Shown: piece by piece, positions 14,001 through 19,280 of the stretch
Layout of the letters: each line of letters starts with the position of its first letter
Numbering within the stretch: the first letter of the stretch is position 1
Assembly: GCA_040755715.1 (NCBI GenBank)
Contig: JBFLXN010000037.1
Span: forward strand, 1-19,903
DNA: 19,903 nucleotides
Source of the DNA: JBFLXN01 sp040755715 [NCBI: Candidatus Edwardsbacteria bacterium]
Lineage (GTDB): Bacteria; Edwardsbacteria; AC1; JBFLXN01
Reading direction: 5' to 3'
Made by a program: the position numbers and the translations under genes
Notes under the pieces: model-generated
Told to the model about the DNA's origin: nothing
Database searches by the model: none
What the model saw: only the letters and a program-made list of their open reading frames with translations

Positions 14001-14753
14001 TCACCCTATCCACATATGAGACTTTGGTGATTTCTCCATTCTTCTTTGTATCTCTGTTTCTTTCAATTTTTTGTTTGTTTCTCTGAGGCGAGTGGAGAGG
14101 GTCTTAGTGAATGCCTTGTAGAGTTTGAGGCTTAAGAGTGGTTCGGCTGAAAGTAGTGAATCAAAATCCTCTTTCTGGAGAGAAAGAAGGAGACAGTCCT
14201 CTTGGACAGTAGCGGTAGCTGACCGAGGAAAGTCGTCAATGAGAGCCATTTCTCCCAAGTAATCTCCGGCAGAAAGAGTGGCCAAAATTTGGTCAGGTCC
14301 GCCAGGGATGCGTTTGCTAATCTTTATTTTCCCAGAAATAATAATATATAACTCACTCCCCTCATCACCTTCAAAGAAGAGAGGAGTTTCCTTAGCCAAA
14401 TATTTCTCCCGAGTGATAAACAGGAGAGCGGACAATTCTTTCTCGGTTAAATCCTTAAATAGATAGACCTTTTTGAGCATCTCTTTTCTTTGAATTAGAA
14501 TATCTGGCTCAAGTCGGGTTGATTTGAACCAGGCTTGGAATAAAAGGGCTTTGTAGAGAAGCTCTTCGGTGAGCATCCCCTCTTTAACCATAACTTCACC
14601 TAATTTTAATTCAGGATTTTCCAGACTGGCCTTTAACGCTTCCTGAAGTTGTTCCGGGGTGATGCATTTCAAGTCAACCAAGAGTTCACCGATTTGCTGA
14701 CGCTCCGTAATTGGTTCTTCTCCCAAAAAGTCGCTAAAAAAACTGTTTAACAT
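14001..14753 (-). CDS. MshEN-like plus cyclic-nucleotide-binding domain protein, no HTH
   Basis: This 250-residue protein has two recognisable sensor modules. Residues 20-73 resemble the MshEN domain of type II secretion and pilus ATPases: two half-motifs, QIGELLVDLKCITPEQLQEAL and KLGEVMVKEGMLTEELLYKAL, about 30 residues apart, the pattern that binds c-di-GMP in MshE. The first half-motif has Q for the leading R, and K for a usual G. Residues 95-215 are a Crp-like cyclic-nucleotide fold. Its phosphate-binding cassette, GEMALIDDFPRSATA (167-181), keeps the G-E and R-x-A residues seen in cAMP-binding proteins. The C-terminal 35 residues are a short charged tail with no helix-turn-helix, so it is not a Crp-type transcription factor. 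It is the last gene of a three-gene minus-strand operon, 28 bases after its neighbour; no clear Shine-Dalgarno is seen. Confidence 0.8.
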   Translation of the reverse strand: MLNSFFSDFLGEEPITERQQIGELLVDLKCITPEQLQEALKASLENPELKLGEVMVKEGMLTEELLYKALLFQAWFKSTRLEPDILIQRKEMLKKVYLFKDLTEKELSALLFITREKYLAKETPLFFEGDEGSELYIIISGKIKISKRIPGGPDQILATLSAGDYLGEMALIDDFPRSATATVQEDCLLLSLQKEDFDSLLSAEPLLSLKLYKAFTKTLSTRLRETNKKLKETEIQRRMEKSPKSHMWIG

Positions 14754-14781
14754 AATTCAAAATTGTTCAAGGTTGTTTATT

Positions 14782-15369
14782 TTAAATTTTCTCTTCCATT
14801 TCCTTGATTGCTTCAATAGCGGCTGGATACATTCCAGATTGAAGCAGAACAGTCACTAATTTGATGTAGCGTTCTTTTTCAGATTCGGATTTTGGGAGCG
14901 GTTCCTGAACTCCGTTTCTGGGCAGAACGGGGTGAACCGCCTCTCCAGGGGCCCTGGTAGTGAGCTCTTCCGGTCCAAACTCTACGAAACCAGTGGGGCG
15001 AGGTGGAAGGGGGGAGGGAATCGCTTCTTTCGGGCTGACCAATTCTTCTGGCTGAAATTCTTTAATTCCCAAACCGAAAGAAGAAGGTGGTGCTGGTTTG
15101 CCAGCCGGTTCTTGAGGAGTAGCAAAATTGGTTCCAGGAAAATCTCTCCTACCTCCGGCAATTCTCTCTTCCTCTCCTGTCACACTACCGGCGGACAAGC
15201 CCGCTACTGGTTTGCCGTAGTGAACAATACCCAATTCTTCCTCTTTGGCAGGAGTCTTCTCCTCTGTTATTATCTCTTCTTTCTTTCCGGCTTTAACCAG
15301 TTCCTCTAAGAGTGAAGTTTCTTTTTTTTCCTCAGCGAGTTTTTGCATTTTTTTTAATAAATCAATCAT
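14782..15369 (-). CDS. Pro-rich, low-complexity linker protein of unknown function
   Basis: No family is recognised for this 195-residue protein. Residues 1-45 are a charged helix rich in Lys and Glu. Residues 50-160 are Pro/Gly-rich and probably disordered, with two related motifs, GIKEFQPEELVSP and GFVEFGPEELTT. The last 30 residues form a predicted helix (YIKLVTVLLQSGMYPAAIEAIKEM). The shape suggests a tether with short linear motifs that join partners, which is inference from composition. It lies between a coiled-coil/TPR gene and the MshEN/cNMP gene on the same strand, 64 and 28 bases from them. A G-rich site (GGGGGTAAGAG on the minus strand) precedes the ATG. Confidence 0.7.
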   Translation of the reverse strand: MIDLLKKMQKLAEEKKETSLLEELVKAGKKEEIITEEKTPAKEEELGIVHYGKPVAGLSAGSVTGEEERIAGGRRDFPGTNFATPQEPAGKPAPPSSFGLGIKEFQPEELVSPKEAIPSPLPPRPTGFVEFGPEELTTRAPGEAVHPVLPRNGVQEPLPKSESEKERYIKLVTVLLQSGMYPAAIEAIKEMEEKI

Positions 15370-15382
15370 CTCTTACCCCCTT

Positions 15383-15428
15383 CTAACCGCTAATGACCGA
15401 TGGCGGAAAGCGAGCGGCTGGCGGTTAG
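15383..15428. repeat. Palindromic element between operon genes
   Basis: Arms ctaaccgc (15383-15390) and gcggttag (15421-15428) enclose a G/C-richer centre (ccgatggcgg, gcgagcggc). It sits in the 64-base gap between the coiled-coil/TPR gene and the Pro-rich gene, just upstream of the latter's ribosome site. It could slow ribosomes or RNases between the two cistrons. Confidence 0.45.
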
Positions 15429-15433
15429 TGATT

Positions 15434-17563
15434 TCATCTTTTATACACCCCCAGCTTCTTTTTTGCCTCCTGAAGGGTCGGGTCAATTTCTAAGGATTTT
15501 TCCCAGGCTTTCAAGGCTTGGTCAAATTTCTCTAATTCTTCATAGGCATTTCCCAAATTAAGATAAGCTAAGGCATAATTACTCCGCTTGCTAATTGCCT
15601 GATTGAAGAGTTCCACTGCCTCTTCGTAGCGACCTTTTCCTTTATGTAAAGCACCCAAATTGTTATACGCCTCAGCAAAATCCGGATTGATTTCAATTGC
15701 TCGCTTAAATGAAGCAACCGCCTCCTTTTCCTTTCCACTCTCACTCAAAGCCAACCCTAAATTATTATAGGTTTCCAGGAGATTAGGATTTAATTCTAAA
15801 GCCTTTTCAAATTCCACTACCGCCGCCTCAAATTCTCGCTTGAAATATAAAGCGATACCCTTTTCATTATGTTCAACGGCAGATTGTTCAACTCTAATTT
15901 TTTCTTCTTCTTCCTTTCGTTTCTTTTCTTCCTCCAAGAAAGTCAGCGTTTGTTTATTAGCGGTGAGAATTTCAGCAGTAATCTTTTCTAACCGGTCATT
16001 GCGGTCCTTCTCTAAAAGAACTAGACTTTTAATAGCGGTAGAAGTATCATCCAGATTTTTTGCCAATACTTCAAGCATTTCTTGATTTGCTTTTTTTATT
16101 TCCTCTCTGGTTGATTTCTGCTCAGTAGTTTGTAATTTTATTTCTTCAAGTAAGCGGTCATTAAGTCTTACATTTTCTTCCATCTCTTTAGTCAGAAGCG
16201 CAGAAAAAACATCGCTTTTTTTGGAAACATCGGTGAGCGAAGAAATAATCCCTTCCCCATTGGTTTTGGTTTCAGAAAGTAATTCCTGCCAGAGTTTATG
16301 TTCTTCCTGGAAATTTTTATCAAACTGCTGATAGTTTTTTTCATTCTCTCTCAATAAGTTAGAAAAGGAATTAACTAAAGCCTCTTTTGTCTCACTTTGT
16401 TTACCAATAAGATTTTCCCAAAGAGATTTGTTTTCTTGAAATTTGTTCTCTATGGTAGTAATGAGGGCTTCGCTCTTCCTGGTCATCTCCAGAAGAAGAG
16501 GCAATTGCTCTCTTTTCATAAATTCCTGATAAGTTTCCTGATTTGCCTTTAATGCCTGACTATTTTCCAAAGCATTTGTTTGCAGGGCTTCTAATAGTGC
16601 CTCGTTTTTTTGAACGATTTCTTTAAGAATCTCTTTTTGAATAATAAAGTTTTCTTTATTTTCGCTACTGAGTTTTGCAAAGAGTTCTCCCACTTGACTC
16701 TGGTTTGTCTTCAGGATGCTGAGAAGCTCATTGGAGTCTTTCGTTTGTTGCTCAAGTCCCTTTTCTAAAACATCAATTTGGGAATCTCCGTGGGTTCTGA
16801 TTTCCGAGAGTAAAGTAATATTCTCTTTACTTTGGAGAGCCGTTTCGCTTAAGATTTTTGTCAATTCTAAAGAGCTTTGTTTGGACTCTTCTTGAGTGGT
16901 TTTAAGAGATTCATTTATATCTTTTTGGCCCCTGGCAATTTCTACTAAGATTTCTCTTTGACTCGTTAGATTCTCTATATTCTCCTCGCTACTCTTTTTA
17001 ATAACTTCGGAGAGGGCATCACTCTTTTTCAAAAGATGCAACAAAGAAGCCGCAGTTGTCTCTTTGCTCTCTTTAATTTCAAAAATAAGGGATTCTAATT
17101 TTTCTCCTATACCGCTAAAGATTTTCACACTATCTTGATAGAGACTTTTGATTTCTTCCTTCCATTCGTCTTCTTTCTCCTTTTCCATCACTTGGGTGAG
17201 AGTTTCATTGACTTTCTTCATCTCAGCGAGCAATACTTCAAGATTATTTGTCAGTTCTTCGGGAAGGCGAATTTTTTCTGTAGAACTGGTTTGAATAAAT
17301 TTTTCCAGAGAACCTTTTAATTCACTAAGGGTAGAAAATGCTTGTTCTGACTTTGTTTGAAGGCTATCAAAACCTCGGATGCATTCAGCTACTAGTGGTA
17401 GAGAACATTCGGACGCCAGGACATCGTAGAGTTCACATTCTTCCTTCAGGCATTCAAGGAGTTGAAAACTGGGCGTTTCCTTTTGTTCAATGATTTTCCC
17501 CTCAGCGTCATATTTTATTTCACTCAAGATTTGTCTTTGAGAAGAAAATGGACACTTGCTCAT
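15434..17563 (-). CDS. Cys-cluster, long coiled-coil and TPR scaffold protein
   Basis: This 709-residue protein is of unknown function. Cysteines lie at residues 4, 38, 43, 53 and 61 (SFQLLECLKEECELYDVL, then SECSLPLVAECIRG), which could bind zinc or iron-sulphur. From about 70 to 555 the sequence is charged, helical and heptad-like, with loose internal repeats such as ENKSLWENLIGK and EEHKLWQELLSE. A very acidic/basic stretch (EEEKKRKEEEEK) leads into four 34-residue TPR units at about 562-696, with motifs such as AYNNLGALHKGKGRYEEAVELF. No signal peptide or membrane segment is seen, so it is probably a cytoplasmic scaffold. The start is strong: GGAGGAGG lies 7 bases before ATG, and a promoter lies at 17586-17615. 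It is the first gene of the minus-strand operon. Confidence 0.8.
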   Translation of the reverse strand: MSKCPFSSQRQILSEIKYDAEGKIIEQKETPSFQLLECLKEECELYDVLASECSLPLVAECIRGFDSLQTKSEQAFSTLSELKGSLEKFIQTSSTEKIRLPEELTNNLEVLLAEMKKVNETLTQVMEKEKEDEWKEEIKSLYQDSVKIFSGIGEKLESLIFEIKESKETTAASLLHLLKKSDALSEVIKKSSEENIENLTSQREILVEIARGQKDINESLKTTQEESKQSSLELTKILSETALQSKENITLLSEIRTHGDSQIDVLEKGLEQQTKDSNELLSILKTNQSQVGELFAKLSSENKENFIIQKEILKEIVQKNEALLEALQTNALENSQALKANQETYQEFMKREQLPLLLEMTRKSEALITTIENKFQENKSLWENLIGKQSETKEALVNSFSNLLRENEKNYQQFDKNFQEEHKLWQELLSETKTNGEGIISSLTDVSKKSDVFSALLTKEMEENVRLNDRLLEEIKLQTTEQKSTREEIKKANQEMLEVLAKNLDDTSTAIKSLVLLEKDRNDRLEKITAEILTANKQTLTFLEEEKKRKEEEEKIRVEQSAVEHNEKGIALYFKREFEAAVVEFEKALELNPNLLETYNNLGLALSESGKEKEAVASFKRAIEINPDFAEAYNNLGALHKGKGRYEEAVELFNQAISKRSNYALAYLNLGNAYEELEKFDQALKAWEKSLEIDPTLQEAKKKLGVYKR

Positions 17564-17585: not shown

Positions 17586-17615
17586 ACTATATCAAATTTC
17601 AGTAAGGTAAGTCAA
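17586..17615 (-). promoter_or_regulatory. Promoter of the coiled-coil/TPR operon
   Basis: On the minus strand TTGACT (17615-17610) and TATAGT (17591-17586) are separated by 18 bases, with a T-tract (GGTTTTTTCC) directly upstream of the -35 box. The expected start of transcription lies about 15-20 bases before ATG 17563, with GGAGGAGG in between. It is nearly the same design as the promoter at 19281-19309. Confidence 0.8.
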
Positions 17616-17659: not shown

Positions 17660-17758
17660 TGTGTAATGTGAAATGTTTGATGTGTAATGAAGAACATGAC
17701 GATTATGGCGAGCAAAGCCGAACCATTACCTGACACATTTCACATAACACATTACACA
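17660..17758. repeat. Palindromic word-repeat element upstream of the coiled-coil operon
   Basis: Arms tgtgtaatgtg (17660-17670) and cacattacaca (17748-17758) are exact inverted copies. The words gtgtaatg, aaatgt and acattac recur within each half. The centre contains the G/C-richer ggcgagcaaagcc. It lies between two minus-strand transcription units and could end the radical-SAM transcript. Confidence 0.55.
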
Positions 17759-18960: not shown

Positions 18961-19015
18961 AATTTTTTGCAAAATATTGAAAACACATGGCTAGATACAT
19001 CAGAGAGCTCAGGGA

Positions 19016-19141
19016 GCTCCGTAGGAGCGATATACTATGCAAAATGCTTTTGTTTGAATAGATCAAAGATTATATCGCTCCTGACGGAGCTTAAAAAGCA
19101 TTGTTTTTCCTTGCTCTATTAATATTTTGCTCCTACGGAGC
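19016..19141. repeat. Three REP-like hairpins (GCTCC-GGAGC)
   Basis: Three copies of one small palindrome occur: gctccgtaggagc (19016-19028), gctcctgacggagc (19077-19090) and gctcctacggagc (19129-19141). The first is in inverted orientation to the other two. The first two are extended by gatata and tatatc, so they pair as a 19-base imperfect inverted repeat. Such pairs are typical of REP/BIME sequences. They lie in the long leader between the promoter at 19281-19309 and the radical-SAM gene. Confidence 0.7.
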
Positions 19142-19280
19142 TAATGTCGTATCATAGGTGAAAGGTTGAATTGATTTAGCCTCGCCTCCTTCTAATAAAT
19201 ACGCAGTCTGTAATTCTAAGGATGACGCGTAAATTTCCGTCCATTCGTGGCTTCATTTTTCGCATTACATTCCCCAAGAT

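What the first reader, a model, noticed from the sequence alone, without database searches (positions are those of the whole stretch)
14001..17563. Undescribed three-gene scaffold and dual nucleotide-sensor operon
One promoter drives a Cys-cluster/coiled-coil/TPR scaffold, a Pro-rich tether with paired EFxPEEL motifs, and a protein that joins an MshEN-like domain to a cyclic-nucleotide domain without any HTH. MshEN binds c-di-GMP in MshE and Crp-like domains bind cAMP or cGMP, so the last protein could integrate two second messengers. The lack of an output domain in it, next to two adaptor-like proteins, suggests that output comes through assembly. The combination does not match a system I know.
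Basis: partly seen in the sequence, partly recalled or inferred. Interest (0 to 1): 0.62.

Follow-up and report, generated by a model that had tools for sequence, protein, structure and literature searches.

The report
Scaffold, tether and nucleotide-sensor gene trio
Three neighbouring genes in an uncultured bacterium encode a scaffold-like protein, a flexible partner protein and a sensor-like protein; the first two stay together in all ten sister-group genomes examined and look like an undescribed pair, while the sensor lies beside them only here and may link them to small-molecule cell signalling.

Summary
In detail: three same-strand ORFs at the stated coordinates encode a four-Cys/coiled-coil/TPR protein, a proline-rich protein with paired EFxPEEL motifs, and an MshEN-like plus CNBD protein without HTH. 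Profiles confirm MshEN (NF053729, 49.2 bits, cut-off 38) and CNBD (PF00027, 1.8e-24). By RpoD the window is sister to Edwardsbacteria (100/100). In 10 of 10 Edwardsbacteria genomes scaffold and tether are same-strand neighbours 1-6 bp apart; the four cysteines are invariant and the tether keeps 2-3 motif copies. The third gene is not part of this unit: in 9 of 10 genomes its halves are two adjacent genes elsewhere, so the window carries a fusion beside the pair. MshEN motif I is degenerate (6/11 key positions), so c-di-GMP binding is doubtful; the CNBD phosphate cassette is intact. All 10 genomes have GGDEF and class III cyclase domains; in 2 of 10 a cyclase gene lies directly upstream of the pair, but in 5 of 10 the upstream genes are NadA and lipid A genes. 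Best reading: an assembly platform with exchangeable clients, here a cyclic-nucleotide sensor. Mechanism is inferred; the two-messenger idea is open but unproven.

The parts
15434..17563 (-). Gene 1: scaffold (709 aa): N-terminal four-Cys domain, coiled coil, C-terminal TPR
17366..17563 (-). four-Cys domain, residues 1-66 (C4, C38, C43, C53); predicted beta-hairpin followed by a turn region and a long helix
   Evidence: A1 profile hits 10 of 10 Edwardsbacteria genomes; Cys invariant in 13 of 13 rows; best model pLDDT 82.5
15878..17365 (-). coiled-coil-like middle of gene 1, variable length among relatives
   Evidence: alignment; helices predicted at residues 55-95 and 102-132; rest by reading
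15452..15877 (-). TPR region of gene 1, about residues 563-704
   Evidence: Pfam TPR_1 2.1e-34 and others; strongly conserved
14782..15369 (-). Gene 2: proline-rich tether (195 aa)
15211..15222 (-). HYGK motif of the tether (residues 50-53), HYGK, HYAK or HLSK in relatives
15040..15060 (-). EFQPEEL motif 1 (residues 104-110)
14962..14982 (-). EFGPEEL motif 2 (residues 130-136)
14001..14753 (-). Gene 3: MshEN-like domain fused to CNBD (250 aa)
14535..14696 (-). MshEN-like tandem motif, residues 20-73; motif I degenerate, motif II fits the relaxed pattern
   Evidence: NF053729 49.2 bits; motif scoring; predicted four helices
14148..14405 (-). CNBD, residues 117-202
   Evidence: PF00027 1.8e-24; Foldseek best 4.3e-13
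14217..14255 (-). phosphate-binding cassette GEMALIDDFPRSA (residues 167-179)
   Evidence: G167, E168, R177, S178 invariant in 14 of 14 rows
17586..17615 (-). promoter-like site upstream of gene 1 (TTGACT-18-TATAGT with TG)
   Evidence: consensus match only

Best explanation
Genes 1 and 2 encode an assembly platform. Gene 1 is an elongated, probably oligomeric scaffold whose four-Cys N-terminal domain probably binds a metal and whose C-terminal TPR groove holds partners. Gene 2 is a disordered tether whose repeated EFx[LP][DE]EL-type motifs dock on the scaffold TPRs or on client proteins. Gene 3, in this lineage a fusion of what are elsewhere a small MshEN protein and a stand-alone CNBD protein, is a client: a CNBD, probably dimeric through its long C helix, senses a cyclic mononucleotide and passes the change to its MshEN four-helix bundle, which serves mainly as a docking module. 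Output comes from recruitment to the platform. Shown: gene structure, domain homology, conservation of the pair, split versus fused state of gene 3, presence of GGDEF and class III cyclase domains in relatives. Inferred: disorder of the tether, metal binding, TPR-tether docking, dimerisation, cNMP binding, signal flow, and that gene 3 acts with the pair.
For: Scaffold and tether neighbours, same strand, 1-6 bp gaps in 10 of 10 sister-group genomes. One scaffold match per genome in 10 of 10, none at E<=1e-3 in the other 183 of 193 with the single sequence. Four Cys invariant in 13 of 13 rows. 2-3 tether motifs in 11 of 11 proteins. MshEN and CNBD genes adjacent in 9 of 10 relatives and fused here, a fusion-type link. 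CNBD cassette invariant in 14 of 14 rows. Class III cyclase domain matches (3-6) and GGDEF matches (8-18) in 10 of 10 genomes (catalytic residues not checked). In 2 of 10 (G001, G002) a cyclase gene lies directly upstream of the pair, preceded by a GAF-GAF-HD gene; Pfam on the G001 proteins gave CHASE2 1e-55, Guanylate_cyc 1.8e-21, HD_5 1.6e-36.
Against: Gene 3 is beside the pair only in the window, so the functional link rests on one genome of a lineage with no close relative held. The cyclase neighbourhood is in 2 of 10 genomes with similar proteins, perhaps one event. The commonest upstream neighbours are not signalling genes: NadA, with LpxK and mostly a Kdo transferase gene beyond it, on the same strand in 5 of 10, and a convergent pair of M16-type peptidase genes follows downstream in 7 of 10. 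The four-Cys model has no significant PDB match (best E 0.32) and three of its five models are poor. No complex was modelled. Four more distant scaffold homologues have no tether beside them by reading.
Confidence: 0.35

Rival explanations
1. Two-messenger receptor: gene 3 binds c-di-GMP through MshEN and a cyclic mononucleotide through the CNBD and integrates both on the scaffold.
For: NF053729 above cut-off; A6 profile matches PilF 6e-20 and MshE 1.3e-8; motif II fits the relaxed pattern 11/11; a published c-di-GMP site works with Lys/Leu in place of the first Arg and with a second motif one residue short (PMC11731258, passages), and imperfect motifs are said to be tolerated (PMC5013675, passages); GGDEF domains in 10 of 10 relatives.
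Against: Motif I has Q1, I2, K10, C11, S24 at key positions (6/11) and fails the published relaxed pattern at 3 of 11; spacer 6 not 5; the four small MshEN relatives scored also have a weak motif I, 5-7 of 11 by the extended pattern.
Confidence: 0.15
2. Gene 3 is unrelated in function: a sensor that by chance came to lie behind a conserved two-gene module.
For: Not adjacent in any of 10 sister-group genomes; gene order around the pair differs among them.
Against: Same strand with a 28-bp gap; a cyclase gene is beside the pair in G001 and G002.
Confidence: 0.35
3. The scaffold and tether are an assembly factor for the cell envelope or pili, not part of signalling.
For: LpxK, NadA and mostly a Kdo transferase gene lie upstream on the same strand in 5 of 10 genomes; the best NCBIfam matches are TPR assembly proteins (MamA, PilW, Tgl), all under cut-off; a FlgT_C-like gene is beside one distant homologue.
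Against: Those upstream genes were not seen beside the pair in the other 5 of 10; NadA is not an envelope gene and lies between; no signal peptide or lipobox is evident by reading, so the scaffold looks cytoplasmic.
Confidence: 0.25

Closest known systems
MshEN domain (VcMshE, PDB 5htl; PilF GSPII domains; NCBIfam NF053729)
   Same: tandem two-motif four-helix unit; profile above cut-off; PDB profile matches
   Different: motif I degenerate, spacer 6, no ATPase domain; fused to a CNBD
CRP/FNR-type cyclic nucleotide-binding domain (PF00027; 2pqq, 4ev0, 3gyd)
   Same: fold and phosphate-binding cassette
   Different: no HTH; N-terminal MshEN-like domain
Small MshEN gene + CNBD gene of Edwardsbacteria (this work)
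   Same: the same two modules; CNBD 46-51% identical in the seven genomes where it was matched alone
   Different: two genes rather than one, and not beside scaffold and tether
TPR proteins MamA, PilW, Tgl
   Same: TPR repeats
   Different: all under curated cut-offs; no four-Cys domain plus coiled coil in those families (recalled)

Membership tests
MshEN c-di-GMP receptor domain | profile match over curated cut-off | tested here: met
   NF053729 49.2 vs 38 bits; three of three small relatives tested 46.1-48.1
MshEN c-di-GMP receptor domain | two intact 24-residue motifs | tested here: not met
   motif I 6/11, motif II 8/11 strict and 9/11 extended; consensus from PMC5013675 and PMC11731258 (passages)
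MshEN c-di-GMP receptor domain | 5-residue spacer | tested here: not met
   spacer is 6 (sequence)
MshEN c-di-GMP receptor domain | four-helix bundle | tested here: inconclusive
   four helices predicted, 15-27, 33-45, 51-57, 63-78; the packing was not examined
MshEN c-di-GMP receptor domain | c-di-GMP binding | not testable with these tools
   needs a binding assay
cNMP-binding domain | profile and fold | tested here: met
   PF00027 1.8e-24; Foldseek 4.3e-13
cNMP-binding domain | phosphate-binding Glu and Arg | tested here: met
   E168 and R177 invariant in 14 of 14 rows; the role of these residues is recalled
CRP/FNR transcription factor | C-terminal HTH | tested here: not met
   no HTH hit; C-terminus predicted as one helix 205-241
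TPR protein | TPR repeats over cut-off | tested here: met
   TPR_1 116.3 bits vs 27.8
Conserved three-gene system | three genes adjacent in relatives | tested here: not met
   two of the three in 10 of 10, the third in 0 of 10

The most novel reading that the evidence does not exclude
Scaffold and tether form a dedicated second-messenger platform of this part of the bacterial tree, onto which different lineages plug different modules: a GAF-HD protein and a CHASE2 cyclase in one, a fused MshEN-CNBD coincidence receptor in the window, so that c-di-GMP and cAMP/cGMP signals are combined by assembly rather than by a DNA-binding or enzymatic output.
Probability: 0.14. Interest if true: 0.75.

Novelty: new variant of a known kind. 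Interest (0 to 1): 0.5.

Why it matters
Many known receptors of second messengers act through an attached enzyme or DNA-binding domain (recalled). A scaffold and tether kept throughout a phylum, with separate exchangeable sensor proteins, would be a bacterial parallel to scaffolded nucleotide signalling, and the fusion of a small MshEN protein with a CNBD protein gives a direct test of which parts work together. The pair is found once per genome and has invariant key residues, so it is easy to express and test.

Tried and rejected
Three-gene conserved operon: rejected, since gene 3 is elsewhere in the sister-group genomes. Carriage on mobile DNA: no relative of the Cys domain or of gene 3 confirmed in viral contigs (pattern scans that reach mostly close relatives); in plasmids gene 3 gave two records, CRP-type CNBD matches of 30-36% identity. 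Carboxylate-clamp binding of the tether by the TPRs: considered by eye only, from recalled patterns; not computed. Fold of the Cys domain: no significant PDB fold match and nothing significant in PDB sequences (best 0.059). Hairpin between genes 1 and 2: z -1.25, 22 of 200 shuffles as good, so no evidence of a structure. Alignment A3 was dropped because the small MshEN rows were misaligned to the CNBD; A4 has 14 rows where A3 had 21. Weak scaffold hits: G118, G120, G121, G375 were accepted by reading their proteins; G151, G310, G370 and G254 were read and rejected; G185, G189, G204, G311, G329, G345 were not read. The PDB profile search for MshEN also matched designed helical repeat proteins (4yxx 1.5e-9 and others), so its weaker hits need care. 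Literature (listings only unless said): MshEN with cyclic di-GMP and motif, 49 papers, three of them opened for passages; MshEN with 'cyclic nucleotide-binding domain', one paper, not opened; Edwardsbacteria with cyclic, none; MshEN with tetratricopeptide and scaffold, four papers, three listed; T2SSE_N with cNMP_binding, none; two broader searches. No search was made for the four-Cys scaffold by name, as it has none; 'undescribed' means no Pfam or NCBIfam family for its N-terminus and nothing in these searches.
Full report
What is there. Three minus-strand ORFs fill 14001-17563 exactly as described: 709, 195 and 250 aa, with gaps of 64 and 28 bp. Downstream a convergent NuoH-like gene ends 14 bp away; upstream an AmmeMemoRadiSam-type radical SAM gene lies on the same strand after a 248-bp gap. 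A promoter-like site sits just upstream of gene 1, but such sites exceed expectation in the region scanned (14 found, 6.3 expected), so 'one promoter' is not shown.

Domains. Gene 3 matches NF053729 (MshE-related c-di-GMP motif) at 49.2 bits over a cut-off of 38 and PF00027 at 1.8e-24. Pfam gave no MshEN match on the whole protein. A profile of the window segment plus five relatives finds PilF (6e-20), MshE (1.3e-8) and PilB in the PDB, but also designed helical repeat proteins such as 4yxx (1.5e-9). AlphaFold2 gives four helices over the MshEN part and a CNBD ending in one long helix (mean pLDDT 83); the best Foldseek PDB hits are CNBDs and CRP proteins, and the MshEN half was not searched by fold on its own. 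Gene 1 has TPRs; gene 2 has no significant family match.

c-di-GMP site. Against the published motif (passages of PMC5013675, PMC11731258 and PMC12943098) motif II scores 9/11 (extended) and 11/11 (relaxed), motif I 6/11 and 8/11; the spacer is 6 residues instead of 5. The tandem total of 19 of 22 was reached by 0 of 20,000 shuffles, so the resemblance is not chance, but binding is doubtful. The four small MshEN relatives scored there have motif I at 5-7 and motif II at 8-9 of 11 (extended). The CNBD phosphate cassette is intact and invariant in 14 of 14 rows.

Where the window belongs. No genome is held for it. In a search of 386 relatives of an Edwardsbacteria genome the seven best RpoD matches by E-value are Edwardsbacteria; the nine Edwardsbacteria with a match at 1e-120 share 52-54%, the best other genome, G118, 51%; G001 has no match at that threshold. 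An RpoD tree of 27 rows (26 of the 30 loci kept plus the window; L154, L155, L156 and L158 left out) puts the window beside the nine Edwardsbacteria rows, 100/100, on a branch of 0.74. The name rests on record titles of L002 and L004 and on the phylum set of 10 genomes given for G003.

The conserved pair. The four-Cys N-terminus occurs once in each of 10 of 10 Edwardsbacteria genomes and, by single sequence, in none of the other 183 of 193 at E<=1e-3. In all 10 the tether follows on the same strand, 1-6 bp away. The tether keeps an HYGK-like motif and 2-3 copies of an EFx[LP][DE]EL-type motif in 11 of 11 proteins including the window's. With a wider profile over 386 genomes the scaffold also appears in G120 (1.5e-13) and G121 (8.3e-10) and, weakly, G375 (0.0034) and G118 (0.0053); these four keep four Cys and TPRs with a coiled-coil-like middle by reading, but no tether is seen beside them. 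The four Cys are invariant in 13 of 13 rows. The best model of the N-terminus is a beta-hairpin followed by a turn region and long helices; Cys 4 and Cys 38 fall at neighbouring hairpin ends, as they would in a metal site (inference from secondary structure), with no significant PDB match.

The third gene. Of 38 loci found with gene 3, L001-L004 match both halves; the other 34 match the CNBD part only. In Edwardsbacteria the MshEN part is a separate small gene just before the CNBD gene in 9 of 10 genomes: in the eight measured it encodes 62-69 aa and the gap is 19-33 bp in seven and 222 in G015; the ninth, G001, was read from the alignment. A LysM-type gene precedes it where read (profile match under cut-off for L003). 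G016 has no such match at 1e-11. The scaffold lies elsewhere in these genomes. Further small MshEN genes occur in 7 of the 10 genomes, up to three in all per genome. The window's gene is therefore a fusion, relative to these genomes, that lies beside the pair.

Neighbours of the pair. Class III cyclase domain matches (3-6 per genome) and GGDEF matches (8-18) are in 10 of 10 genomes; catalytic residues were not checked. In G001 and G002 the genes directly upstream of the pair are a GAF-GAF-HD gene and a cyclase gene (Pfam run on the G001 proteins only, CHASE2 and Guanylate_cyc; in G002 the cyclase reading changes frame once and the HD gene reaches the end of the stretch fetched). Against this, in 5 of 10 genomes (L070, L071, L074, L075, L076) NadA is the upstream gene of note, with LpxK before it (Pfam LpxK on L070, L074, L075; by motif in L071, L076) and a Kdo transferase gene in four of the five (Pfam on L070 only, by motif in the others), all on the same strand; in L069, L072 and L073 a thioredoxin-type gene lies upstream on the other strand; and a convergent pair of M16-type peptidase genes follows in 7 of 10 (Pfam M16 on three of them). 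So the commonest context is lipid A and NAD synthesis, not signalling.

Judgement. Its link to nucleotide signalling rests on two separate neighbourhoods, the window's and that of G001/G002, against a commoner non-signalling one. Mechanism is inference.

Noticed in passing
L189, L190, L191 (G003, G014, G003): Extra small MshEN genes with no CNBD gene seen by eye in the surrounding 8 kb; up to three small MshEN genes per Edwardsbacteria genome.
   Followed up: partly
window 17660-17685 and 17733-17758: 26-nt inverted repeat, 81% complementary, 47 nt apart, between the radical SAM gene and gene 1.
   Followed up: no
window 19015-19037 and 19120-19142: 23-nt inverted repeat (AGCTCCGTAGGAGCG...), 87% complementary, 82 nt apart, perhaps a repeat element.
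   Followed up: no
window 14782-14880: The window tether has a C-terminal helix-like extension of about 30 residues that none of the 10 relatives aligned has.
   Followed up: no
L125 7359-11246, L126 7699-11523: A TPR protein of about 1280 aa lies directly upstream of the scaffold homologue in both G118 and G375.
   Followed up: partly
Edwardsbacteria genomes: 6-13 matches to gene 3 per genome, nearly all in the CNBD part, some of them two in one protein of about 1080-1140 aa.
   Followed up: no
L070, L071, L074, L075, L076: LpxK, NadA, scaffold, tether in that order on one strand, with a Kdo transferase gene further upstream in four of the five; a possible envelope link of the pair.
   Followed up: partly
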